From the NCBI GenBank assembly GCA_963556695.1, contig CAUWAG010000020.1, forward strand, positions 1,736,001 to 1,800,000: a DNA stretch of 64,000 nt, read 5' to 3'. Source of the stretch: Anthostomella pinea (lineage: Eukaryota; Ascomycota; Sordariomycetes; Xylariales; Xylariaceae). Under the pieces are notes generated by a model. It saw only the letters and a list, made by a program, of their open reading frames with translations. It did not search any database and was not told the DNA's origin. Position numbers and translations under genes: made by a program. Shown piece by piece: positions 26,707-53,888 of the stretch (its first letter is position 1; each line of letters starts with the position of its first letter).

Positions 26707-27388
26707 CACGAAGTGGTGTTCGAGAAGAAGTGCAGTGATGAGACAAGAAAAAAGTGGAAGTTGCGCAGTTACGGCTGGCACATATATACCCCATCCAGTG
26801 CCGGTGAAGTCTTGCCTGCCGATCCGGCGAACAGCAGACTGTCCAGGATAGCAAGTCTCTCTCCTGCGATATTGCTAAAGCAAACGGTCACATTGCTATG
26901 TTCAAACTGCGAGAGATTCCCTGTCCAGCTCATTGACAAGCACTAAACGTGGTTGCCAAACTCGCTTGCGACTTGACAAGTTGTTTCTCCCAGTGCAAAC
27001 AAGCACCAAGATGGTGCTTGCGAGCATTTGTTGTTGTTTCGCCTCCTGTATTCATAGGCACACACGATAGACATACGAGCAGGAGAATACGATTTGCCTT
27101 CAAGAAAATCAAATGTTGCTTTTTGGCAGTGTGGTTGGGTATTTACACATCTCAGATCAAGGCATTTCGGTATAACATAAGTCAGCAACTGGGTCGAGAT
27201 AAGTTAGGTCGTAGACAGGAGAGTTTGCAATGGAACAGTCGCTTTCCGGGAACGATTGCACTTGATTACCCCTAAGGTAATCTCTGACTTTAATTGTCGA
27301 TGCCAATCATTCTCCCATCCGATTGCCTGTGTATGTAGGAGTGGTCTGTTACTGGCAATTGGCTGTTAGTGCAGTTGCTAGAATATAT
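26707..27388. other. Intergenic, no gene recognised
   Basis: Region between the Argonaute pseudogene 5' end and the 3' tail of the next LINE. Short frames on both strands carry no motif. The TATATATACC stretch at 26,781-26,790 could be the old Argonaute promoter. Confidence 0.45.
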
Positions 27389-27689
27389 TGTTTGTTTGTT
27401 TTGTATTTAACGTGGGGGGTAGCTCCTCAGTAGTGCAGACCACGCCTCCCAGAGCCTCTGCATCGCAGGGTTATGGAGGTCTCAAGAAAATAAGTACAGT
27501 CAGTCCCGCTCACGGGCCCATCCCCGTTGTTGCGGCGGTATGACCTTGGGGTCATCCATCTGGTCCTTCAAGAATAGCTATCTATCAGAGACAGATTGTT
27601 GAAAAGAACTTGTTCTTCTCCACGAATTTTGCCCATTCTGTGCTCCTCTCCTCTAAGTATTGTAAACAGGCTGTCCTAGGCGAGTACCT

Positions 27690-30600
27690 AGGCAACAACC
27701 GATTTTTTCCTAGCCTCTTACAAAAGAAAATATATTGTGGTGTTTTCTTTTCACTATAGCTGCAGTGGTTGTTCGAGTCTGTATGCCCAAAGCGTTCGTG
27801 GTATCTGGCAAAGTCGCCATGTCCAGATCTGGCCGCTAGAAGTCTGTGTAGAGTGCTCCTCTTAAAGGATATAAGGCCTCTTTCAGTTACTGCATGTGAG
27901 TATACTTCTTGATACCTAGGTTCTGATTGGTTTTTCCACCATTGGTTGAACTCTTTCTTGCCCTTTTTTTTTGAGATCTCTTTTTACCCAAGAGATTATA
28001 GGAAGGTTCATTGTGTCTATTTTTATTATGGTACCCTTTTTTGTTAGTGTGTTAGCAGCTTCGTTGCTATCAATATCTCTGTGTCCAGGAATCCACTTAA
28101 TGGTCACTCCAGGAGTGTGTGCTATGGCGAGTTCTTGGAATCGCAGAAAAATTTTCTGTGATGTCTCGGGTGGAGTCCCATTGAGCCCATCCACCACTGA
28201 TGTGTTGTCCAGGCAGACATATAGCTGTTTTCTGTGTCCAATTGCCCTGACTGCTGCAAGACCTTGGAGAGCACCATGGACTTTAGCATCCACTACTTCT
28301 GCTTATAGAAGTCTGCCCCTTCCCCGGTATACTTCTTGTGTAGTGCCGCCTTTCCTGATAGTATAGCCCCATCCAGTGCGGGTTGTGCCTTGGTTGTCCA
28401 ATTGTGATCCATCTGAATAGATGACAAGGTCAGTGTTCGCATTTCTTTCCTGTAGCCATTGCTTGAAGAGCTCTATTTCTTTGTCTTTGTCTTTACGGAC
28501 TGGGGGCTTCTTTCATAATGGCTTGGTGAGTATTGGTCTCTTGAAGTCAGGGACTAGTTGGAAGCTCCTTTGTAGCCTTGTTGGTTCTTTGCGAGCTTGT
28601 ATTTGGAGCCTGCTAACAAGAGGGTGTCTCTGGTCTACTCGTCCGAGTCGGAGGCCGTGACGTCTTCTTATTGACTCTGCAAGAATTCCTGCTGGAGAAA
28701 TCTGTGATTCAAAGTGTAGGATATGTCCAGGGTGTGTTTTCCAGACTGGCAAGATAGTTCTGATTGCCGTTCATAGTACAGCATTTATCGTTCTAAGAAG
28801 CCCTTTAATGCGACATGCTGATATCCTACCTAAACTCCTAATTTTTTCCATTCCTGGGTACCAGGCCTCCAGGCTATGTGTAAGAATAGGAATAACACAA
28901 GCTTTCACAGCCCTCTTGGTTGACTTTACTGGAAGTCCTTTGACTGTGTTGCATAGTCCTCAAAGGTGGTTTATTACCCTACTAGCTTTCTTGGCCCAGT
29001 AGGAAATGTGATCTTTGAAGTTCAGTTTTCTATCCAGGAAGACACCCAGCCATTGCATGGAGTTCTTTGCTGTTCTATTTATTGTCCTGTGGCGGACCGG
29101 AGGATTGTCTGAGTTCTTTTTCCGTGAGAAGTGCATAATCTCGGTTTTGTCGGGATCAAATTCAATAGCATTGTTATGTCCCCATTGGTTGAGCAGGTAA
29201 AGATTTTCAGAAGCCTCTTTGGCTATTTCTTTAAGGTCCTTTCTAATACAGAGAGTCGCTAGGTCGTCTGCATATCCACAGCGTCTCCTTTTCATACCGA
29301 GTCGGGCACAGATTGGCTCTGTATACAGCATATAAAGGATTGGAGAAGCTGGTGAGCCTTGTGGTAGCCCACAAGTGGGAGCTTTAATGTCGGTCATAAT
29401 ACCTTCGAACCGAACTCTTGCGGACTGTTCAGACATGAATGACTGGACCCATCTTATGAGAAAGTCTGGCCAGCCCTGTTCTCTCATGCGAACCACCAGC
29501 CGTCCCATTAAGGCAGCGTCGAAAGCCCCTGTCACATCTGTTGTGACTACCGTTGCAACAAGGCCTTGGTCAAGGGCCTGCTCAATATCGTGTATGAGTG
29601 CAGTTACTAAGTCGGCGGCAGAGCGCTTTGGCAGAGCTCCAAAATATTGTGGAGCTAGAATTCCGAGTTTAATGACAAACCAGGCAATTCTTTTTGTAAT
29701 GAGTCGTTCTAGGCCTTTGCCAAGACATGATAATAGCGATATTGGTCTGTAGGCCCTGGGATTAGAGTAGTCTTTCTTGCCTGGCTTTGGGATCATCACC
29801 ACCTCAGCTACTTTGAATGGTTTAGGGTGGTGTCCAATCTGTAGACAGGTCTGGAAAAGGGCTCTGATATGCTCCCCAATGACTGGCCAGCAAGCTTTCA
29901 GAATCTGTACAGGTCTTTTGGTTCAGTCGCTGAATCAATTAGAGTCTGCCAGTACTCTCTCTTAGCTTTTCGGACCACACAGCAAAATTCCCGTCGGGCT
30001 GAATTTTGCCCTTCTTGGCTTGTGGTCTGTTTAGAAAGGGCCCTGTATGTCTGAACAGCTGCTTTGCAGTCATCATTCCACCAAGCAGTGGGCCTAGATT
30101 GACGGGGCTTCTTGCCCACTGTCTTGATACAGCCTTGAATCATATTGATCAAGCTTTGTGTAAAGGTATCCACCTGGCCAGGGGATACACCCAGCCGGGG
30201 GAGTTCATGAATCCTGGTTTGGACATTGTCTGCCAGCTCTTGTAGTTTATCGTCCGGTACTATCCAATAATTGGCCTTAGGAACTTGGTCCCGATCTCCC
30301 TGAATTGGAATGACTATTCGTAATGTCTCATGATCTGAGGTGCACTGAAGTGTATCATTGACTGAGGCTTCAGCCATGGGGACATCTGAGAACACCAGAT
30401 CCAGTACATTTCCATCGTCATGTGTTGGGACATCTGGTTCAGAAATCAGATCCAGTCCGTGGTCTGCCATAGTCTGTGCCAGTATGACGCCACCGTGATA
30501 TCCTGGATTGCTCGAGTCCCAGGATATGTCGCCAGCATTAAAATCTCCAGCTATAACACAGCCAAAAGGTGGAGTCCATACTTCCAGAATATCATCCACT

Positions 30601-30995
30601 TCCTGTGGGTTGTCACATGGCCGGTAGACACTGGCAAATGTGATGCCATGTACCTTGACCCAGGTGATGTCTCGTGTAGCATAGGGCCGAAATTGATCCG
30701 CTTGAAGGTGTTTTCTCACATAGATGAGAGATCTGGGCCGTGTACTGTCGCTGTCCCAGGAATCCACTGGGGAGTATATATTGTAATTGGGGTGTGTCTT
30801 TACTCCCATTCTCCTGCCTGGTGATATGCCAACCCAGGGCTCTTGCATCAGAATGATGTCTGCTTGTTCTCCTTTGTAGTCAGCCAGGTTGATGGCTAAC
30901 TCTGTAGGGCCTGCACTCTTTTGTCCTCTTGCTGCATTTATAGAGTGGATGACTAGATGCCCATGTCGATATGTTTCATTTGATGTACCTAGCAT
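27690..30995 (-). pseudogene. LINE ORF2: endonuclease-RT-RNase H, broken
   Basis: Begins MLGTSNETYRHGHLVIHSIN at 30,995. APE-type endonuclease to 29,898: ILMQEPWVGI, CVIAGDFNAGDISWDSSN, TSDHETLRI. At about 29,900 the frame changes and jumps from EPKDLYR directly to ILKACWPVIGEHIRALFQ, suggesting that the linker and first RT part (perhaps 300 bp) is deleted. RT: IPKPGKKDYSNPRAYRPISL, GLPQGSPASPILYML and the catalytic GYADDLATL; a stop at 28,960 follows. RNase H: VIYSDGSQLDNQG, then, after a frameshift near 28,303, CLDNTSVVDGLNG and IPGHRDIDSNEAAN. ORF2 nicks DNA and copies the element RNA at the nick. Confidence 0.9.
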
Positions 30996-32560
30996 TAACT
31001 GACAATAATGGTGTCGGTATCCTTGGGATGAGCTGTATCTGTTGTGTCGATTTGCATTGTGGTGTCTTTGTTATTATTGTTAGGTATTGACTTAGCTTGA
31101 TTTCTGCCTGTTTTATTGAAGGCCCTGGATCTGGCTCTTTCTCCGGCCAGCCTTATTTCTTGGATTTGTTTCCATGTGTGCTTGTGGATAATACCTTTTA
31201 CAACCTTGGGGCGTGCAGGGCATTTATCGAAGTCAGTAGCATGAGTTCCTTTGCAGTTGACACACTTTGGGATTGGTTTTTTGCACTCCCCTTGGTGTAC
31301 TGTGTTGGCGCAATGTGCACATACTTGCTTTTTATATCGGTAGTTCTTACTATGGTATCTGAAGCAGCTCGCACACTGGTGAACCTTAGGGGAGTATTGA
31401 ATGTGCCTTAAGGTCATTAAGTGAGCAAAAAGCATGAATGGTTTCTTTGCTGCACGGGGCAGAGAGATCACCTATGTGATCTCTGGATCTGAATCAACCG
31501 TGTTCCTTAAGAGTATGCACCTTAAAGGTCTGTCACCTGTTTAGGCTTCAACCTTGTTAGTGACAGCAGTATTAGTAATATCGATTATAAACCCTTCTAT
31601 ACTGATGACCTTTTTTGGGCATCTATCGACCTTGTAGTGATACCAGACTGTGTGGGTCTCGATCTTTTCTGCCTTGAGAATATCAGTGATTTCTTCTTGG
31701 AAGGCCAGGAGCTTAGCCTGAGTTGGCTTGTCCCTTTGGTATAAGGTAAATCCGGAGGGGCACCGGGTCACTTCTCTAAGCTCTTAAGGGTGGAGCTTAA
31801 GTCTTCTGTTCAGTGTAGACTTTATTCCGTAAGGCTCTAAGTGGCTATTATCTATACGGACAAAGACCCGGAGATCGGCCTGTTTCTTCTTTAATTAGTT
31901 AGTAATGATAAGGGCGCCAGACTGTGTTTTCTTTATTGTAATGTTGACTATCCGTGGATGCTGTCGCTGGCTAAAGGAGACGGCTTGGGCAAAGGTCATG
32001 GTGGGCTTCACCATCCCTATCCCCCCAGGAATGGTCTTCTTTTTGGACGGATCTTGGGTTTCCAGCCACTTGTTCAGACATTTAGAGAAAAAAGCGCTGA
32101 ACTCTTTGACATAAGAATATAATTCGGTTCCAGCTTTCTCAAATGTCTTATCAATTATTGCAGTATATTCCTGAAACATTGTTATCCTGACTTCATAAAG
32201 GTGCTTGTCTTTAGCCAGTATTTTGGCAACTTGGTTCTGGCATTCTGAAGAGGAGGCTTTATTCCTTATATAGTGTGTAATGGCTTGGTCTATAAAGATT
32301 TTGTTCAATTGAGGTCGTTTCATTCTAGTAGTGCTGCTGTCATTAGTATTTCAGGATTTTCCTTTTAGAGGGGAAATAACAGTGAAATCAGTCTCAGAGA
32401 CCTGTGACAGGCTGCTGCTGATGTTGTCAAGCAGCGCCTGGCGGAGCCTGCTCGGAGTTGCTGGGCCATATGTCTTTCTAGGGGCAGGGGATTTGAGCAC
32501 GCCGCCGGTGGTCGTCTTTGGGACGGCCACGGGCGTGTTTAAGGGCCCGTCGTGGAAGGG
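30995..32560 (-). pseudogene. LINE ORF1 (gag-like, CCHC) with in-frame stops
   Basis: One frame on the minus strand from about 32,560 (MAPFHDGPLNTPVAVPKTT) to 30,996, interrupted by five or more in-frame stops at about 32,352, 31,895, 31,800, 31,543 and 31,472. The C-terminal third has CCHC-type zinc knuckles (CASCFRYHSKNYRYKKQVCAHC, given here as two overlapping motifs CASCFRYHSKNY and CAHCANTVHQGEC, then CVNCKGTHATDFDKC), the usual RNA-binding end of Tad1-type ORF1. ORF1 stop and ORF2 start overlap or nearly touch at 30,995. The same stops occur in the second copy at 47.5-49.4 kb. Confidence 0.85.
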
Positions 32561-32587
32561 TGCCATCCGGCTTGTGAGAAAAATTCT

Positions 32588-43993: not shown

Positions 43994-44834
43994 GACGATA
44001 TGCGAAGAATGACGAGTAGCTGTGTACGAAAGCGTCTTGATTTTCTGCAAATCTATTATCCTGGTGTTATCTTCATCAAGTCGGTCGACCTCTCGCATGC
44101 TCTGAGTGTCGCGTCGTACAAATATCTTAGTCAATGTGGCTTTTATCAGTTGGCACTTACGGTCATTTGTAGAACTATTTCACCACCTTGAGTTTTATTT
44201 TACTTAGGCCTACAATCGATATTCAGGTTTTATACGTCTTGCTTCGGGGTAACTGTGGGTCTGTTATACCTATCTATATACAAGTGCCCATCGCAGCAAG
44301 GAGCAACATATTTGCAAACAGCGGCACATTTATTAGCTAATCCAATATTTGCAAGTCTTGTCATCCTCCGTACGTGCCACAGTCCGGGCTATAAATATAG
44401 TATGGTCGATATACGCAGCACTTGAACATGCTTTGATGAAGTAACCAGTTGCCAGCACAGGTGAATATAGCGATGTGTGTACTTTGATCCTTTTTCCTGA
44501 TTGAAATATATACACGACTCCTTTCTGTTGACGTCCTCCGCTGCCCGGGATAGTCTTTTACTTCTTGCCCCGTGATAAGATCAACCAAGCGGTCTCCTGG
44601 GACAACTCAAACCACCTCGCCTAGACGACCCCCACCGTGTCAACCACAATTTACCACCACCTGCTCCAGATACTGCAAACCTCCTTCACACCATCCGTTA
44701 CCCGCTACTCGCAAATTTCCCATCCACGAGGCCAGCAATTCCCATCTCTTCAATCGCCGCGGCCGATTGCACAACTTTCCGAATGTCGTAAGCCTTCGGC
44801 ACCCTCATCACGAGCGGTATAACCACATACATGC
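43994..44834. other. Intergenic, no gene recognised
   Basis: Short frames only. The last 200 bp (CCACC/CACCACC-rich) form the leader of the RNA-ligase-like gene. Confidence 0.5.
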
Positions 44835-45911
44835 ATGATGGCTCCCCCCCGAAAGCTTGCCTTCACAGGACGGGTCCAGGAGGTGATATACGGTTCGGAT
44901 GAAACCCCGAGAGTCGGCGTTGCCGTCGTCAACGGCACCGCCTGCGCAGTCGGCTCCGGAATGATAGCATCAAACGATGTTGTGATCGTCTTCAATGCGG
45001 ACACTTTCGTCCCCAGCGCCGGACATGCGCCCACATTCGACCAAACCCGAACCCCAGCCCACCGGGACCCTGCAACCCTAAATGGCGTTGAAGGCATCCG
45101 TGTCAAGCCTATCATCCTAGATGGAAAGCTCTCTGCAGCCTTTGCACTGAAGACAGACCTATATCCAAACATCCACGGCAAAGTTCGGGCCTTCGCCTCC
45201 CGCCATTCGATTACCAGCCTCGATCAGAAATTCCTAGGTATTCAAGTCCCTGTGAGCTTGGGCCTCAAAGCTTGGGAGCCGAAGGTTGCATTCGACATAG
45301 TTTATGAACGACCCGACTTCATTCCGATCAACACTGTACCGGACATAAAGGCCACTACGGCATTCTAAGATGCCTCAAACTACTGCCTTAACTTCCAAGT
45401 CAGCGCCAAACCGCTCGGTTACCCCATGGCGGTTTACTACTTGCAGACGCAATCCGCCTTTGCCGACGCGATACGACACTGCGAAACTGGCCGCATTGTC
45501 GAGACAGGCCGAGTAGGAGTCTGCGGCGAGCGCTTCGATTACGTGGAGATGTTCTCCAACCCGTCATGGCGAGCCGCGCTTACCACAGGCCTTGCCGAGA
45601 AGCTGATTGCCTTCAATCGCAACATCGTTCTCGTCGGAGTCCAGAACGAGAGATCAGTCGGAGATCAAGGACGTGTCACGTACGAATTCGTGGTTATAAG
45701 CATCTGGGATCTGGACGAGCAGAGACGGTGGTCTTTTGAGCAGACCAGACGTCAGCTTGCCGCATGGGGGCTTCAAACTCCTCGTTTGCTTGGGCAATCA
45801 TCCCTCTGGGACATCGGCGCCGGTACTGCGAAGGCTGCATATGGCCATACCAGTCCCGTTGGCTTGGTCTTCGAGAGCTTGGACGGAGGCATCGTCTTTG
45901 GTCAGGATTGA
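44835..45911 (+). pseudogene. RNA-ligase-like protein, broken and lacking catalytic motifs
   Basis: Two segments in one frame, 44,835-45,368 and 45,369-45,911, separated only by a TAA at 45,366-45,368. The first resembles the OB-fold N-terminal part of Deinococcus-type (Rnl5/DraRnl) RNA ligases: RVGVAVVNGTACAVGSGMI, VVIVFNADTFVP, GIRVKPIILDGKLSAAFAL. The second resembles the ligase domain: GRVGVCGERFDYVEM, the FVVISIWDLDEQRRW strand and GLVFESLDGGIVF. The nucleotidyl-accepting motif K-x-DG-x-x-M reads AKPLGYPM, keeping the Lys (codon 45,408-45,410) but losing the Asp; the motif III Glu and motif IV Glu positions are not Glu. Motif V is absent. Family members reseal RNA ends with ATP. Either a pseudogene or a sequence-drifted relative. 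Confidence 0.6.
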
Positions 45912-46731: not shown

Positions 46732-47520
46732 CTAGGTCGTATAGAACAAGCCATCTATGACAACCCGAGCCAACAGAGATGGACTCAAAGCATTGGCCTG
46801 AAGCTTGTTTTCTAATTGAGTCGCATCATTTGTCATTGCGATAATACGCCTGACTTTCGTAGAGCTCACCTCGCGCTCATCCATCGGATTGTCGCATGGG
46901 ATGAACCGAATCGTATGTCGAGGCCGCCCTACTGAATGGCAAGTCCAGACGACGCTGGGTTGCCGGTTTACTTTCGCCATTTCGTGTATCCACTGAGCTT
47001 GAGTAAAATTTCCGTGTCATCCGTGACGAACTCGCATTGGCGGCCGATATTTGTGACAACTAAGTGGTCTGACTACAACCCCAAATTTAGGGTGTTAGAT
47101 ATGCTGGCATGGTCAGCGCCATAAAGGTCGATGCACTCCGCTTTGAAACCAGCAGACTTGATCGAGTCTTTTAGGTCTCTTTCGAATCCTGGGGCAGTTG
47201 GTTTCGCCCCTACCCAGCATCAATGACTCATGCCATGTTCTTTGAGTGCTTCTCTCCAGAGCTGTATCCGCTGATCTCGTACGAAAACCAGTGGGTCTTG
47301 ACGGCCGGCCAGTTTAGAACGCAGAGATTTGTCGCTCAAGACGAACACGAAGGCGGCAATGGCATTCCAGTCTTCGCCGCAGTTTTCAAAGGCATATCTG
47401 AGACTGTTTAGGTGGCCGACGTGTGGGGGGTTGAAGAAGCGTCGGTAGAAGAAGATTCGGTTGACACGGTCTTTTCTCAAGGTTGGAAGCTGCAGTGGCA
47501 GATTCGAGTCCGTGTTGAAG
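46732..47520 (-). pseudogene. Nucleotidylyltransferase (NMNAT-like), main part
   Basis: On the minus strand it reads NLPLQLPTLRKDRVNRIFF, then FNPPHVGHLNSL (the HxGH nucleotide-binding motif; the usual GSFNPPH is RRFFNPPH), LSDKSLRSKLAGRQDP, RIQLWREALKEHG, IDLYGADHASIS, SDHLVVTNIGR and the SSTKVRRII signature (ISSTxxR) near the C-terminus, ending at 46,732. Breaks: TGA at 47,222-47,220, TAG at about 47,083 and a one-base shift near 46,985. Family enzymes join a nucleotide to nicotinamide mononucleotide or similar substrates. The N-terminal codons lie at 48,403-48,498 in inverted orientation. Confidence 0.75.
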
Positions 47521-47522
47521 AG

Positions 47523-48189
47523 ACTGTGTTTTCTTTATGGTAATGTTGACTATCCGTGGATGCTGTCGCTGGCTAGAGGAGACGGCTTGGGCAAAGGTCA
47601 TGGTGGGCTTCACCATCCCTATCCCCCCAGGAATGGTCTTCTTTTTGGACGGATCTTGGGTTTCCAGCCACTTGTTCAGACATTTAGAGAAGAAAGTGCT
47701 GAACTCTTTGGCATAAGAGTATAATTCGGTTCCAGCTTTCTCAAATATCTTATCAACTATTGCAGTATATTCTTGAAACATTGTTATCCTGACTTCATAA
47801 AAGTGCTTGTCTTTAGCCAGTATTTTGGCAACTTGGTCCTGGCATTCTGAAGAGGAGGCTTTATTCCTTATATAGTGTATAATGGCTTGGTTTATAGAGA
47901 TTTTGTTCAATTGAGGTCGTTTCATTCTAGTAGTGCTGCTGTCATTAATATTTCAGGATTTTCCTTTCAGAGGGGAAATAACAGTGAAATCAGTCTCAGA
48001 GACCTGTGACAGGCTGCTGCTGATGTTGTCAAGCAGCGCCTGGCGGAGCCTGCTCGGAGTTGCTGGGCCGTATGTCTTTCTAGGGGCAGGGGATTTGAGC
48101 ACGCCGCCGGTGGTCGTCTTTGGGACAGCCACGGGCGTGTTTAGGGGCCCGTCGTGGAAGGGTGCCATCCGGCTTGTGAGAAAAATTCT
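47523..48189 (-). mobile_element. Inverted 5' part of LINE copy 2 (ORF1 N-terminal half)
   Basis: Matches 31,919-32,587 in the same orientation (about 97%): 5' region, MAPFHDGPLNTPV start, stop at KGKS, then MKRPQLNKI and onward to IKKTQS. It ends at 47,523 at exactly the base where the plus-oriented remainder at 48,499 begins, so the two are halves of one element. Confidence 0.88.
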
Positions 48190-48402
48190 CTTGTGCCTTG
48201 ACAAAGATAGTCAGTTATTAAGAGAAGTGCCTGCTTGAGTGCAGATATCGAGGTTGCGCCCTAACAGCGGGGCGTCAAGAAAAATAGTTGTTTTTGTTTT
48301 GTGGTGGTGGAGGGAATATAAGAGTTGGAGACCGCTGCCCATTCAATACGTTCCAATGCTAAACCTAAACACAGTTGATAGTTACCAGCTATACTACACA
48401 TC

Positions 48403-48498
48403 ATGGAAACACAGAGTACCTCAGAAAATGTCGGGTCCGAGAGCATGGCTCTGTCGGACTATCTACACAATTTGAAAGACCTCGAGGACAACTCATAA
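48403..48498 (+). pseudogene. Inverted N-terminal codons of the NMNAT-like gene
   Basis: Open frame METQSTSENVGSESMALS and onward through DYLHNLKDLEDNS to a TAA at 48,496-48,498. A TATA-like AATATAAG at about 48,315-48,322 and a normal leader precede it. Flipping 47,521-48,500 back puts this frame in phase with LFNTDSNLPLQLP of the main part, separated only by the TAA (CAA to TAA is a RIP-type change). Confidence 0.65.
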
Positions 48499-49839
48499 CT
48501 GGCGCCCTTATCATTACTAACTAATTAAAGAAGAAACAGGATGATCTCCGGGTCTTTGTCCGTATAGATAATAGCCACTTAGAGCCTTACGGAATAAAGT
48601 CTACACTGAACAGAAGACTTAAGCTCCACCCTTAAGAGCTTAGAGAAGTGACCCGGTGCCCCTCCGGATTTACCTTATACCAAAGGGACAAGCCAACTCA
48701 GGCTAAGCTCCTGGCCTTCCAAGAAGAAATCACTGATATTCTCAAGGCAGAAAAGATCGAGACCCACACAGTCTGGTATCACTACAAGGTCGATAGATGC
48801 CCAAAAAAGGTCATCAGTATAGAAGGGTTTATAATCGATATTACTAATACTGCTGTCACTAACAAGGTTGAAGCCTAAACAGGTGACAGACCTTTAAGGT
48901 GCATACTCTTAAGGAACACGGTTGATTCAGATCCAGAGATCACATAGGTGATCTCTCTGCCCCGTGCAGCAAAGAAACCATTCATGCTTTTTGCTCACTT
49001 AATGACCTTAAGGCACATTCAATACTCCCCTAAGGTTCACCAGTGTGCGAGCTGCTTCAGATACCATAGTAAGAACTACCGATATAAAAAGCAAGTATGT
49101 GCACATTGCGCCAACACAGTACACCAAGGGGAGTGCAAAAAACCAATCCCAAAGTGTGTCAACTGCAAAGGAACTCATGCTACTGACTTCGATAAATGCC
49201 CTGCACGCCCCAAGGTTGTAAAAGGTATTATCCACAAGCACACATGGAAACAAATCCAAGAAATAAGGCTGGCCGGAGAAAGAGCCAGATCCAGGGCCTT
49301 CAATAAAACAGGCAGAAATCAAGCTAAGTCAATACCTAACAATAATAACAAAGACACCACAATGCAAATCGACACAACAGATACAGCTCATCCCAAGGAT
49401 ACCGACACCATTATTGTCAGTTAATGCTAGGTACATCAAATGAAACATATCGACATGGGCATCTAGTCATCCACTCTATAAATGCAGCAAGAGGACAAAA
49501 GAGTGCAGGCCCTACAGAGTTAGCCATTAACCTGGCTGACTATAAAGGAGAACAAGCAAACATCATTCTGATGCAAGAGCCCTGGGTCGGCATTCCACCA
49601 GGCAGAAGAATGAGAGTAAAGACACACCCTAATTACGATATATACTTCCCAGTGGATTCCTGGGATAGCGACAGTACACGGCCCAGATCTCTCATCTTGA
49701 TTGATTGATTGATTGTATTTATCGTGGGTGCAGTCCCTCTATAGGGCAAACCACGCCTCCCAGAGCCATTGCATCGCAAGGTTGTAGAGGTGTCAGTCTA
49801 GATACTTTCAAATCCGCGCACAAGCCTATCCACGCTGTA

Positions 49840-51775
49840 ACATCTCACCCCCCCCTGCGGACCACCCCCCCACGGACCACTCCACACCACACCACTCTCA
49901 TTCAGATGAAGCCATCTACAACCACCACAGTTGCTAAATACACTAAGGTCGTGTTGTTCTAATCATAATACAGCTCCCAGAATCCGATTCCGACCCTAAA
50001 TCTTCACCAGGGATCTCTTATGGGACCTCTTTGCCTATAGCGGAGTCCCTATAAACCCTCCTGTTCCTCAGCTCCATTTTGGCCTCCTTTATGTTAGCCA
50101 TTGTGACGAATCGTTCCCCTGGTGTTGGTTTGACTGCTTTTTGAGTGGTATTAGCCTTTTTAGCCACTTGAGCCTCAAGCAGCTCACATTTGGCCCGTAG
50201 ATTTGTAATGGTAGCAGCCTGAACATCTATGGCCTTGCCAGCCTTCCGTACCAACAAGCGCTCAAAGGGCCCCCCAAAGGAAGGGTCCTTTCTTTTGAGC
50301 TTTCGAGCACTCTCCCGCAAAGCCCGGCTTCCAGAGGGTGTTGTGACAATGGTTTTAGCTACCATCTCGAGAAAATCTGGTGTTGTGGCTCGCTCGGAAG
50401 TCTTAGGGTCCCTTTGGCGTGCCCTGGCCACCCCCTTGTCCTCCAGAATCACATATTTTGACTTCGACGCCTCCGCTCTGTTGCGAGGAACAATCCCAGT
50501 CTTTTTCCAGGCAATTCTGATGTTGAGGTGCGTCATTGTGTCCTTCCGGGCCTGCTCGTAGCACTCCAAAACCTCCTCCTTAGATGGTCTGAGTCCCAGA
50601 CGGCCGCTGGGCGTCTCCTGGAGTAAGGTCTTCAACCTTTTCTTTACCAAATTGAAGACTCCCACATCTAATACCTGGACAACATGGGAGCAATGAGGTT
50701 CATAAAAGATCAACCATACTTTGTTTCTCAAGCAGGTGGCTAGGAACTCGTCATTCGTGTGGGAGTCGTGGTCATCACACACCAAAACCACCCATGTGTT
50801 GCCGTGGACCTCCCGAATGTGAGGAATAAAGATACGTTGAAGCCATTCTAACGCAATGGGATTCGAGGTCCATCCATTGGGCGGCGTAATAAAGCTCCAG
50901 TCGGTGAATTTGCCCTCGTTTTGGTTGCTAAACCACTGGGCTTGTACGTTAACCCCCTTGAGAATCACCAGCGGCGGCAAGGTCTCACCAGATCCGCTCA
51001 CACACTCTAGGGCAGTTATCCATTCACCCTTCTCGACCCCTTTCTTCATAGCCACGTTGCCGGAGGCCTCGGAGACCACCCAATGGGAGTCCCCAACCCC
51101 CTGGGCGATTCCCATTTTGTCGACGTTGTACCAGCGTGCTGGCATGAGGTTAACCACGTCAGGGGCGTCACACTGATCGAAAAAAATGTTGATATTTGCC
51201 GCTATAGCACCATTCACTCGGTTGTAGTCGATAACACGAGACTTTATTATCTTGACTTCCGGGTTTCGAGACAGGAACTTGGATGCCTAATTTTTCCCTA
51301 ATTCTCGAGCATCCCCGGTGGCATGGAGCATCCGCTGGGCCATGAGACGGAACTTAGAGACCGCCAGAGAATACCCTAACCGTGCTTGCACCAGGGCCCA
51401 GCTTGCCAGCTTATGTTCGAGATACGGTGAGAGAGCCTGTTGGAGAACGCTGGTCTCATTCCGCGTTGGGGTGCCAGAGATTCGTCGGTTGACGTACGAG
51501 CGGCTGATTTGCCATTTGAGGGCTGACGAGCGGACTGGAGCTCCGCATTGGATGGCCAAAATGGCGGCTTCAGCTTTTATTTGACGGTCGTAAAATGACA
51601 TCATGAGATTCAGCAGTGGATAAGGATTCAAATAGTGTGCTTTGTGAAAAAAAAGATGCAAAAGTGATGGTGTAGATGGTGGATCACCATAATCCTGGTG
51701 GTTGGTGAATTACGCGTTTGTGGGTCAGAACGCGCTGGTCCGCGGGGGGGTGGTCCGCAGGGGGGTGGGAGATGT
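49840..51775 (-). mobile_element. pogo/Fot-like DNA transposon
   Basis: 1,936 bp with 40-bp terminal inverted repeats matching at 37 of 40 positions (ACATCTC...CTGCGGACCACCCC...CGGACCA at 49,840-49,879; the inverted copy at 51,736-51,775) and TA duplications at 49,838-49,839 and 51,776-51,777. The empty site is the TA at 1590-1591 in SINE copy A. One transposase gene nearly fills it. Confidence 0.93.
50018..51661 (-). pseudogene. pogo-like transposase with one premature stop
   Basis: One continuous minus-strand frame of about 547 codons interrupted once, by TAG at 51,289-51,287. N-terminal part: psq-type helix-turn-helix (SALKWQISRSYVNRRISG) and a CENP-B-like region ending ARELGKN; the next residue is the stop, where the family usually has Trp (TGG to TAG would be a RIP-type change). 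Then ASKFLSRNPEV and a DDE_1 domain: NVDKMGIAQG, VCDDHDSHTN, PHCSHVVQVLDVGVF, giving a D-D-D triad. A coiled-coil and basic tail ends at 50,018. The first good ATG may be at about 51,604. It would cut and paste the element at TA sites. Confidence 0.9.
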
Positions 51776-52099
51776 TAGCGGTACCCACTTAGAGTGACCA
51801 GATGGTTTTAGTCAATACCCAAGTACGATTCTGTCAGAAAAACCTCCTGTCTAGTGACAAAGCGACCCAGTGAACCTCAGTTCTCTGGTGTACACATCGT
51901 TCCAGTAGCCGTTCGATATATGTCGCATTGGTGGGTGAAGTAGGTGTTTGTTATCTGCTGGCAAGGGAAACCACAAGGGGAAAAACCTCGCAAGAGTGGG
52001 TGTTGTGGAGATAAGCTGCTTGGCTATCGGGCTCTGCGATAAGGGGCCTCTCCACTGTCATGTGCTGGTTGTCGACTCGCACAAGCCGGGTCAGAAGGA

Positions 52100-52191
52100 G
52101 GCCATAACAGGATTCGAACCCACTTGTTCTCGTCGCCCACCGCACAAACGAGAACACAACCAGGCGTATTTGACCATTGCGCCATACAGCC
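52100..52191 (-). other. tRNA-like head of SINE copy B
   Basis: GGCTGTA (52,191-52,185) pairs over 7 bp with TATGGCC (52,106-52,100) as an acceptor stem. An A-box-like GGCGCAATGGTC and an exact B box GGTTCGAATCC are present. The middle has an 8-bp stem GTTCTCGT/ACGAGAAC instead of a normal anticodon arm, so it is a degenerate tRNA-derived Pol III promoter, not a tRNA gene. The parental tRNA cannot be named safely. Confidence 0.8.
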
Positions 52192-52856
52192 GATATCTCA
52201 TCTATGTGAGAAAATATCTTCAAGCGGATCAACTTCGGCCTTACGCTACACAAGACATCACTTGGGTCAAGGTACGAGGTATTATATTTGCCAGTGTCTA
52301 CCGACCATGCCATAACCCACAGGAAGTGGATGACATTCTAGAAGTATGGACTCCACTCTTTGGCTGTGTCATAGCCGGAGATTTTAATGCTGGCGATACA
52401 TCCTGGGACTCAAGCAATCCAGGATATCATGGTGGTACTATACTTGCATAGACTATGGCAGACCACGGACTGGATCTGATTTCTAAACCAGATGTCCCGA
52501 CACATGATGACAGAAATGTACTGGATCTGGTTTTCTCAGATGTCCCCATGGCCGAAGCCTCAGTGAATGATGCACTCCAGTGCACCTCAGATCACAAGAT
52601 ATTACAAATAGTTGTCTCAATTCATGGAGACCTGGACCAGGTCCCCAAGGCTAATCAGGGGTAGTCCCGGACAATAAATTACAAGAGCTGGTGGACAATA
52701 TCCAAAACAGTATTCATGAGTTCCACCGGCTGGGTGCATCCCCTGGCCAGATAGATGCCTTTACACAGAACTTGATCAACATAATCCAAGGCTGTGTCAG
52801 AACAGTAGGCAAGAAGCCCCAAGAATCTAGGCCCACTGCTTAGTGGAATGATGAAT

Positions 52857-53226
52857 GTTTGTTTGTTTGTTTGTTTGTTTTGTATTTAACGTGGGGGGTA
52901 GCTCCTCAGTAGTGCAGACCACGCCTCCCAGAGCCTCTGCATCGCAGGGTTGTGGAGGTCTTAAGAAAATAAGTACAGTCAGTCCCGCTCACGGGCCCAT
53001 CCCCGTTGTTGCGGCGGTATGACCTTGGGGTCATCCATCTGGTCCTTCAAGAACAGCTATCTATCGGAGACAGATTGTTGAAAAGAACTTGCTCTTCTCC
53101 ACGAATTTTGCCCATTCTGTGCTCCTCTCCCCTGAGTATTGTAAACAGGCTGTCCTATGCGAGTACCTAGGCAATAACCAATTTTTTCCTAGCCTCTTAC
53201 AAAAGAAAATATGTTGTGGTGTTTTT
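52857..53226 (-). mobile_element. LINE 3' fragment, minus strand
   Basis: TTTG-type tail at 52,857, the 3' block and the very end of the ORF2 region, matching 27,389-27,745 closely. It stops abruptly at 53,226 (TTGTGGTGTTTT) beside an oppositely oriented LINE end. Confidence 0.85.
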
Positions 53227-53228
53227 TT

Positions 53229-53300
53229 AGGCTCTGGGAGGCGTGGTTTGCACTACTGAGGAGCGACCCCCCACGTTAAATACAAAACAAACAAACAAAC
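53229..53300 (+). mobile_element. LINE 3' terminus, plus strand
   Basis: 72 bp, AGGCTCTGGGAGGCGTGG to CCACGTTAAATAC and an AAAC tail, the same 3' end as above but in plus orientation. It may be the true 3' end of LINE copy 2, its middle having been lost. Confidence 0.75.
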
Positions 53301-53888
53301 ATCTTATATTCCCTCCGAGATACCGAGAAGCTGCACTTCGCGTCAGCCCCTCTAGACACTGGCTGGTGTGAAACATGCATGCCCTATTTCCTCCTTTCAG
53401 TGACAAATGAAGTCCTCGAAAAGAGCCCGATATGTTTCCAAAAGGATGTATCATCCTCAAGAATCATCTCATCACTACCATTGTCTGTGGTATGTCTCAG
53501 GTGACGTTGGGAATAATTGTGTGTGGTTTGTGGAGAAAATCTTCGCGAAGCGGGAGATTCCCATGCGAGGATTTGTCCTTATATAGGGCTATTGTGACTC
53601 ATCGGTACGAAGGTTTCGCTGGTGCCATATTGGCGTTGAGGTTGAGAAAGAAGACGAACAAAGTTCAGCCATGAGGCACCAAAAAAACCCATCGATAATT
53701 TGCTCCAAGTCAGTTGCGGCAAAGCCAAAATTAATTCCATATCATACCATTGTCTTCTTAGATTGGAGATTACCAGTGTCTCAAGCTCTAACCGATTTTG
53801 GAGGCTGTGTTGAACATCCTATTGTCCCTATGAGAAACATGACCCGTTTCAACTACCGTGCCACGCACTTCTTCGCCTTGCTTTAGCT
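53301..53888. other. Unassigned sequence
   Basis: Short frames only (for example 53,432-53,674 plus); no motif recognised. Confidence 0.45.

What the first reader, a model, noticed from the sequence alone, without database searches (positions are those of the whole stretch)
47521..48500. A 980-bp inversion that split a LINE and a nucleotidylyltransferase gene at the same time
Seen: the LINE ORF1 5' half (47,523-48,189, minus) and the remainder (from 48,499, plus) meet at the same base of the element, and between them lie about 300 bp of host DNA holding a promoter, an ATG at 48,403 and 31 codons. Flipping 47,521-48,500 restores a continuous LINE and at the same time puts these 31 codons in frame with the NMNAT-like gene at 47,520, with only a TAA between. 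Both joins carry a 2-bp AG/CT overlap. One event explains both broken genes; simple twin priming would not explain the host DNA between the halves.
Basis: partly seen in the sequence, partly recalled or inferred. Interest (0 to 1): 0.75.

Follow-up and report, generated by a model that had tools for sequence, protein, structure and literature searches.

The report
Small inversion across retrotransposon and gene
In a fungus, a jumping element landed just upstream of a gene and a 980-base piece holding part of each was then flipped around; the copied landing-site sequence, now back to front, records the order of events, but this kind of accident is already known.

Summary
The inversion is real. 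The window lies in Anthostomella pinea F5. Against an uninterrupted LINE copy in the same window, the two LINE halves meet at one base, share only 2 bp (AG/CT) and lose nothing; 16 of 16 other copies fetched run through that point.

New evidence: 15 bp beside the LINE 5' end (48309-48323) recur right after its 3' end (53302-53316). They have no other exact occurrence in the 53.7-Mb genome and now stand inverted. They become a direct target-site duplication only if 47521-48500 is flipped, so simple twin priming is out and the flip came after the insertion, or at the earliest with its sealing.

Correction: 48190-48308 is LINE leader; only 190 bp (48309-48498) is host DNA. The flip puts 31 codons, TAA and the nucleotidylyltransferase-like frame in phase. 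That half rests on geometry and modest coding signals; no orthologue was found and the gene has other lesions.

Likely mechanism: two breaks about 980 bp apart, rejoined flipped by end joining. Inversions of this type are known. Interest low to moderate.

The parts
46732..47519 (-). 3' remainder of a nucleotidylyltransferase-like (PF01467) pseudogene: two in-frame stops and an apparent frameshift
   Evidence: PF01467 E 1.6e-4, 22.3 bits against cut-off 21; single copy
47521..48500 (.). inverted segment (ends ambiguous by the 2-bp AG/CT overlap)
47521..48189 (-). LINE ORF1 5' half, inverted
48190..48308 (-).
48309..48323 (-). left copy of the 15-bp target-site duplication, inside the inverted segment
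48309..48498 (+). host DNA: leader with a TATA-like motif (seen by eye, within the duplication) and the presumed gene 5' end
   Evidence: 48324-48498 single copy
48403..48498 (+). 31 codons from ATG, then TAA: presumed N-terminus of the nucleotidylyltransferase-like gene
   Evidence: In phase after the flip; best of six frames by codon usage from a small training set
48499..49697 (+). LINE continuation (ORF1 3' half, start of ORF2)
49698..52191 (-). SINE-like insertion with a tRNA-like head (52097-52191) and a DDE_1 transposon nested inside it
52192..52856 (+). LINE continuation (ORF2 endonuclease part)
52857..53228 (-). antisense LINE 3' end, probably a nested truncated insertion
53229..53301 (+). 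LINE 3' terminus
53302..53316 (+). right copy of the 15-bp target-site duplication
27380..32587 (-). LINE copy B, uninterrupted at the point where the other copy is split; used as yardstick

Best explanation
A LINE (non-LTR retrotransposon) inserted by target-primed reverse transcription about 94 bp upstream of the presumed ATG of a nucleotidylyltransferase-like gene, pointing away from it, and made a 15-bp target-site duplication (duplication shown; process inferred from it). Then two double-strand breaks, one just past codon 31 of that gene (after the present TAA) and one in LINE ORF1, freed a segment of about 980 bp. It held the first 31 codons, the gene leader, the left duplication copy, the LINE leader and half of ORF1. 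The segment was religated in reverse with no loss, at 2-bp AG/CT overlaps (the joins are shown; breaks and end joining are inferred). Both the gene and the LINE are now split, decayed pseudogenes.
For: Halves meet at one base with a 2-bp overlap against an uninterrupted copy, and 16 of 16 other copies fetched align through the join. The 15-bp duplication abuts both LINE ends, is inverted now and direct after the flip, and has two exact occurrences in the whole genome. The host segment and the gene remainder are single copy. The flip puts 31 codons in phase with the gene. The gene frame has no Met in its first 96 residues after the join, while its domain match starts about 29 residues after the join (residue 34 of the frame), so its start must lie beyond the join. 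The 31-codon frame scores best of six frames and above 2000 of 2000 shuffles, with a small training set and a stop penalty that favours open frames. Read N50 of 8.3 kb at about 80x (PMC10763133, passages) should span 980 bp.
Against: No orthologue was found to confirm the N-terminus, although other Xylariales proteins are in that database. A TAA sits at the restored gene join. An equally long open frame is not very rare by chance (667 of 20000 shuffles). The 2-bp overlap is not significant by itself (my arithmetic: about 0.16 for 2 bp or more) and cannot separate end-joining pathways. No raw reads or uninverted relative could be inspected. A 9-bp word is shared between 47486 and 53327, which is unusual but abuts neither end. 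Of 14 other copies with both ends located, only 6 show a shared word of 9 bp or more at their ends.
Confidence: 0.93

Rival explanations
1. Twin priming during insertion: a second priming event on the LINE RNA inverted the 5' half, and the host DNA between the halves came from a transcript that began upstream of the source element.
For: An inverted 5' LINE part followed by a sense 3' part is the outward shape of twin priming (PMC2837659, passages).
Against: The left target-site duplication lies inside the inverted segment, not at 47520. The host stretch has no second copy in the genome. No element base is lost at the break, whereas twin priming is described as leaving an internal deletion. None of the 16 copies fetched has an inverted 5' part at E<=1e-20 (one, L025, is held for only 1765 bases).
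Confidence: 0.02
2. The inversion happened during LINE integration: open ends at the target and a further break 190 bp away in the host were rejoined wrongly.
For: The inversion includes the LINE 5' junction, the last end to be sealed in integration (recalled). No call separates the two steps in time.
Against: It needs a break in the middle of finished element DNA (ORF1), so element synthesis must have been complete; two independent steps are simpler.
Confidence: 0.04
3. Assembly error.
For: The region is rich in repeats, and raw reads were not available.
Against: The left breakpoint and the host end of the segment lie in single-copy DNA, and the two breakpoints share 2 bp, with one inverted 8-mer within 100 bp, so no repeat would mislead an assembler. 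The reads are long, at about 80x.
Confidence: 0.01

Closest known systems
Retrotransposon-associated inversions between human and chimpanzee (Lee et al. 2008, PMC2603318; abstract, section list and passages seen)
   Same: Inversion with a retrotransposon at a breakpoint. [quoted passage not shown]
   Different: Here it is a fungal LINE and a very short inversion (980 bp), and the target-site duplication is trapped inside it, so the order of events can be read without an outgroup.
Twin-primed 5'-inverted LINE insertions (PMC2837659; passages seen)
   Same: Inverted 5' part followed by a sense 3' part.
   Different: Here the inverted part carries the left duplication and host DNA; nothing of the element is lost at the break.
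Fungal Tad1-type LINEs (clade name recalled, not tested)
   Same: An ORF1 with apparent zinc knuckles (by eye) and an ORF2 piece resembling Exo_endo_phos_2 (27.3 bits, just under the cut-off of 27.4); 3' end of short tandem repeats.
   Different: No tree was made and no clade was tested; the element is ordinary for its own family in this genome.

Membership tests
Post-insertion, retrotransposon-associated inversion | Element continuous once the segment is flipped, in agreement with uninterrupted copies | tested here: met
Post-insertion, retrotransposon-associated inversion | Target-site duplication inverted now, direct after the flip | tested here: met
Post-insertion, retrotransposon-associated inversion | Uninverted order in a related genome | not testable with these tools
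   The genome collection holds no relatives of this fungus (note)
Twin-primed LINE insertion | Duplications flank the two opposed element pieces directly | tested here: not met
   none abuts 47520
Twin-primed LINE insertion | Only element sequence between the two opposed pieces | tested here: not met
   190 bp of host DNA between them, 175 bp of it tested as single copy
Inversion by recombination between inverted repeats | Inverted repeats at the breakpoints | tested here: not met
   2 bp at the breakpoints; within 100 bp of them only one shared inverted 8-mer
Nucleotidylyltransferase (PF01467) | Match over the curated cut-off | tested here: met
   22.3 bits against cut-off 21, but only over positions 6-57 of 133; read-through 22.9 bits
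NMNAT proper (TIGR00482) | Match over the curated cut-off | tested here: not met
   13.2 bits against 112.45; the query is a broken gene and the models are bacterial and archaeal, so this only says that the name is not supported

The most novel reading that the evidence does not exclude
The inversion was coupled to LINE integration: breaks opened while the new element was being sealed were rejoined in inverted order, a way for one insertion to break a gene 190 bp away.
Probability: 0.04. Interest if true: 0.45.

Novelty: new member of a known kind. Interest (0 to 1): 0.25.

Why it matters
It is a clean case in which a target-site duplication trapped inside an inversion gives the order of events without an outgroup. 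It shows how a small inversion next to a LINE can split a gene and look like twin priming. The lesson is methodological: check where the duplication lies before calling a 5'-inverted LINE twin-primed. It changes no general understanding.

Tried and rejected
Orthologue test of the gene N-terminus: no match in two protein searches (665 candidates, none at E<=1e-3; residues 45-140, 15 candidates, none at E<=10), none among solved structures at E<=10, and no second match in the genome with a 167-aa piece. The four PF01467 matches in the genome (the window's own gene is not among them) did not help: by my reading of frames at L036 and L038 they look like other nucleotidylyltransferases; L035 and L037 were not examined. 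A control search with the neighbouring methyltransferase gave 443 proteins at E<=1e-3 (120 listed), many of them from Xylariales, so the database does hold related fungi; the empty result for the gene may reflect the word-sharing limit of the search, the decay of the query or a rare gene.

Twin priming, recombination between inverted repeats and 5' transduction were each tested and rejected. A classical RIP signature was looked for against other copies: C-to-T and G-to-A make up 35 of 40 changes in the inverted half, 62 of 82 in the right half and 34 of 64 beyond the SINE; of these, 8 of 35, 35 of 62 and 18 of 34 are in a CpA/TpG context. So RIP is only partly supported. The bacterial-type promoter scan is not informative for a fungus. 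Paper searches: organism; twin priming; 31 papers; fungal Tad1 inversions; 6 papers, listing only; four phrases for post-insertion inversion; 0 papers; inverted target-site duplication and others; 1,039 papers hold two terms or more, 15 listed, 0 occurrences of that phrase in those 15. My note gave about 196 bp of host DNA; the duplication later set it at 190.

Full report
Organism. The window is C16:1736001-1800000 of a 53,736,082-base, 16-contig genome. The neighbouring methyltransferase is 100% identical over 83% of the query to an Anthostomella pinea protein on a contig of 6,385,752 bases, the length of C16. The published F5 assembly has a largest contig of 8,924,063 and an N50 of 5,428,629 (PMC10763133, passages), the lengths of C2 and C14. 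Its table gives 19 contigs and 53,727,737 bases, slightly different from the copy held here. The reads were Oxford Nanopore, about 80x, N50 8.3 kb after filtering.

The joins. At 47520/47521 the nucleotidylyltransferase-like frame (minus strand) meets inverted LINE ORF1. At 48498/48499 host DNA meets the rest of ORF1. Flipping 47521-48500 makes the LINE frame continuous and gives METQSTSENVGSESMALSDYLHNLKDLEDNS, TAA, LFNTDSN... in one phase. An uninterrupted LINE copy 15.6 kb away in the same window (32587 down to 27380) aligns to both halves, which overlap by exactly two bases. The flipped sequence aligns through the join in 16 of 16 other copies fetched, 15 without gaps and one (L027) with a 1-base gap 8 bases from the join. 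None of those 16 has an inverted 5' half; four have antisense pieces, all from the 3' part of the element or outside it. The 16 are the best-scoring of 38 copies listed outside the window, so this is not a random sample.

What lies between the halves. 48190 to about 48302 is LINE leader, found at 39 other places (247 candidates, 40 scored, one being the query itself). The remaining 190 bp (48309-48498) are host DNA; 48324-48498 has no second copy.

The decisive evidence. The finding does not mention a target-site duplication. In the flipped orientation, 15 bp immediately upstream of the LINE 5' end are identical to the 15 bp after its 3' end. In the present orientation the longest word shared by these flanks is 6 bp, and none abuts 47520, where twin priming would put it; a 9-bp word is shared between 47486 and 53327 but touches neither end. 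The 15-mer has exactly two exact occurrences in the genome, at 48309-48323 (minus) and 53302-53316 (plus). Of 2956 random pairs of stretches from the window, 2 shared 15 or more bases, which I take to be repeats. Of the 14 other copies with both ends located by alignment, 6 show shared words of 9-15 bp near their ends and 8 show none longer than 7, so the yardstick is good but not universal. No listed match other than the window itself covers the right flank 53302-53485. Since one copy of the duplication lies inside the inverted segment, the flip followed the insertion or, at the earliest, went with its sealing.

The gene. PF01467 is matched at 22.3 bits (cut-off 21) from residue 34 of the frame. 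The frame has no Met in its first 96 residues after the join, so the gene must have begun across it. Its ancestral upstream neighbour, by the inversion, is the 31-codon stretch. That stretch scores best of six frames on codon usage and above 2000 of 2000 base shuffles, with 942 training codons and a stop penalty. An open ATG frame at least as long in that phase arises in 667 of 20000 shuffles, so the frame alone is weak evidence. Two further in-frame stops, an apparent frameshift and the TAA at the join mean the gene may have been inactive before the flip. 'NMNAT' is too specific: TIGR00482 reaches 13.2 bits against a cut-off of 112.45. No orthologue was found.

Mechanism. The joins have no loss and a 2-bp overlap, and no inverted repeat at the breakpoints beyond that. 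Two breaks rejoined by end joining is the simplest account. A 2-bp overlap or more is expected in about 16% of random inversions (own arithmetic), so no microhomology claim is made. Inversions with a retrotransposon at only one breakpoint are on record: 41 with L1 and 22 with Alu between human and chimpanzee (PMC2603318, passages). Twin priming is described as two opposed pieces inside flanking duplications, with an internal deletion (PMC2837659, passages); neither feature holds here.

History. Other events hit the same LINE: a SINE-like insertion with a tRNA-like head that itself holds a DDE_1 transposon, and an antisense LINE end next to the 3' terminus. Their order relative to the inversion was not established. 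The split copy and the copy at 27-33 kb are identical over 985 bp (48543-49527) but differ at 19 of 669 positions in the inverted half and are 86.4% alike beyond the SINE, which suggests gene conversion limited to the collinear side of the break. This is a hint, not proof, that the inversion came before that conversion.

Noticed in passing
48543-49527 and the matching part of 30722-31920: 985 bp identical between two LINE copies 15.6 kb apart, while the inverted half is 97.2% and the part beyond the SINE 86.4% alike; the 16 other copies are about 86-92% alike. Looks like recent gene conversion ending 44 bp from the inversion break.
   Followed up: partly
49698-52191: SINE-like element with a tRNA-like head (ARAGORN: tRNA-His, 52097-52191, minus) and a tail resembling the LINE 3' end, flanked by an 8-bp exact repeat (11 of 12 by eye); a transposon with a DDE_1 ORF at 50018-51286 sits inside it.
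   Followed up: partly
52857-53301: Antisense LINE 3' end (about 367 bp) directly followed by the sense LINE 3' terminus, with about 2.6 kb of the element missing: probably a nested insertion plus a deletion; locus L024 shows a similar antisense 3' end inside a LINE.
   Followed up: partly
53486-53745: Dispersed repeat of about 260 bp, 72-91% alike in the 40 listed matches besides itself (103 candidates, 40 scored), between the LINE and the methyltransferase gene.
   Followed up: no
44823-45911: Frames with weak RNA_ligase (PF09414) and PHA02142 OB-fold similarity below the cut-offs, split by a stop: possibly a decayed RNA-ligase-like gene.
   Followed up: no
47386-47952: The inversion leaves a 188-codon stop-to-stop open frame that runs from LINE ORF1 out of frame into the host gene; whether it is used was not tested.
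   Followed up: no
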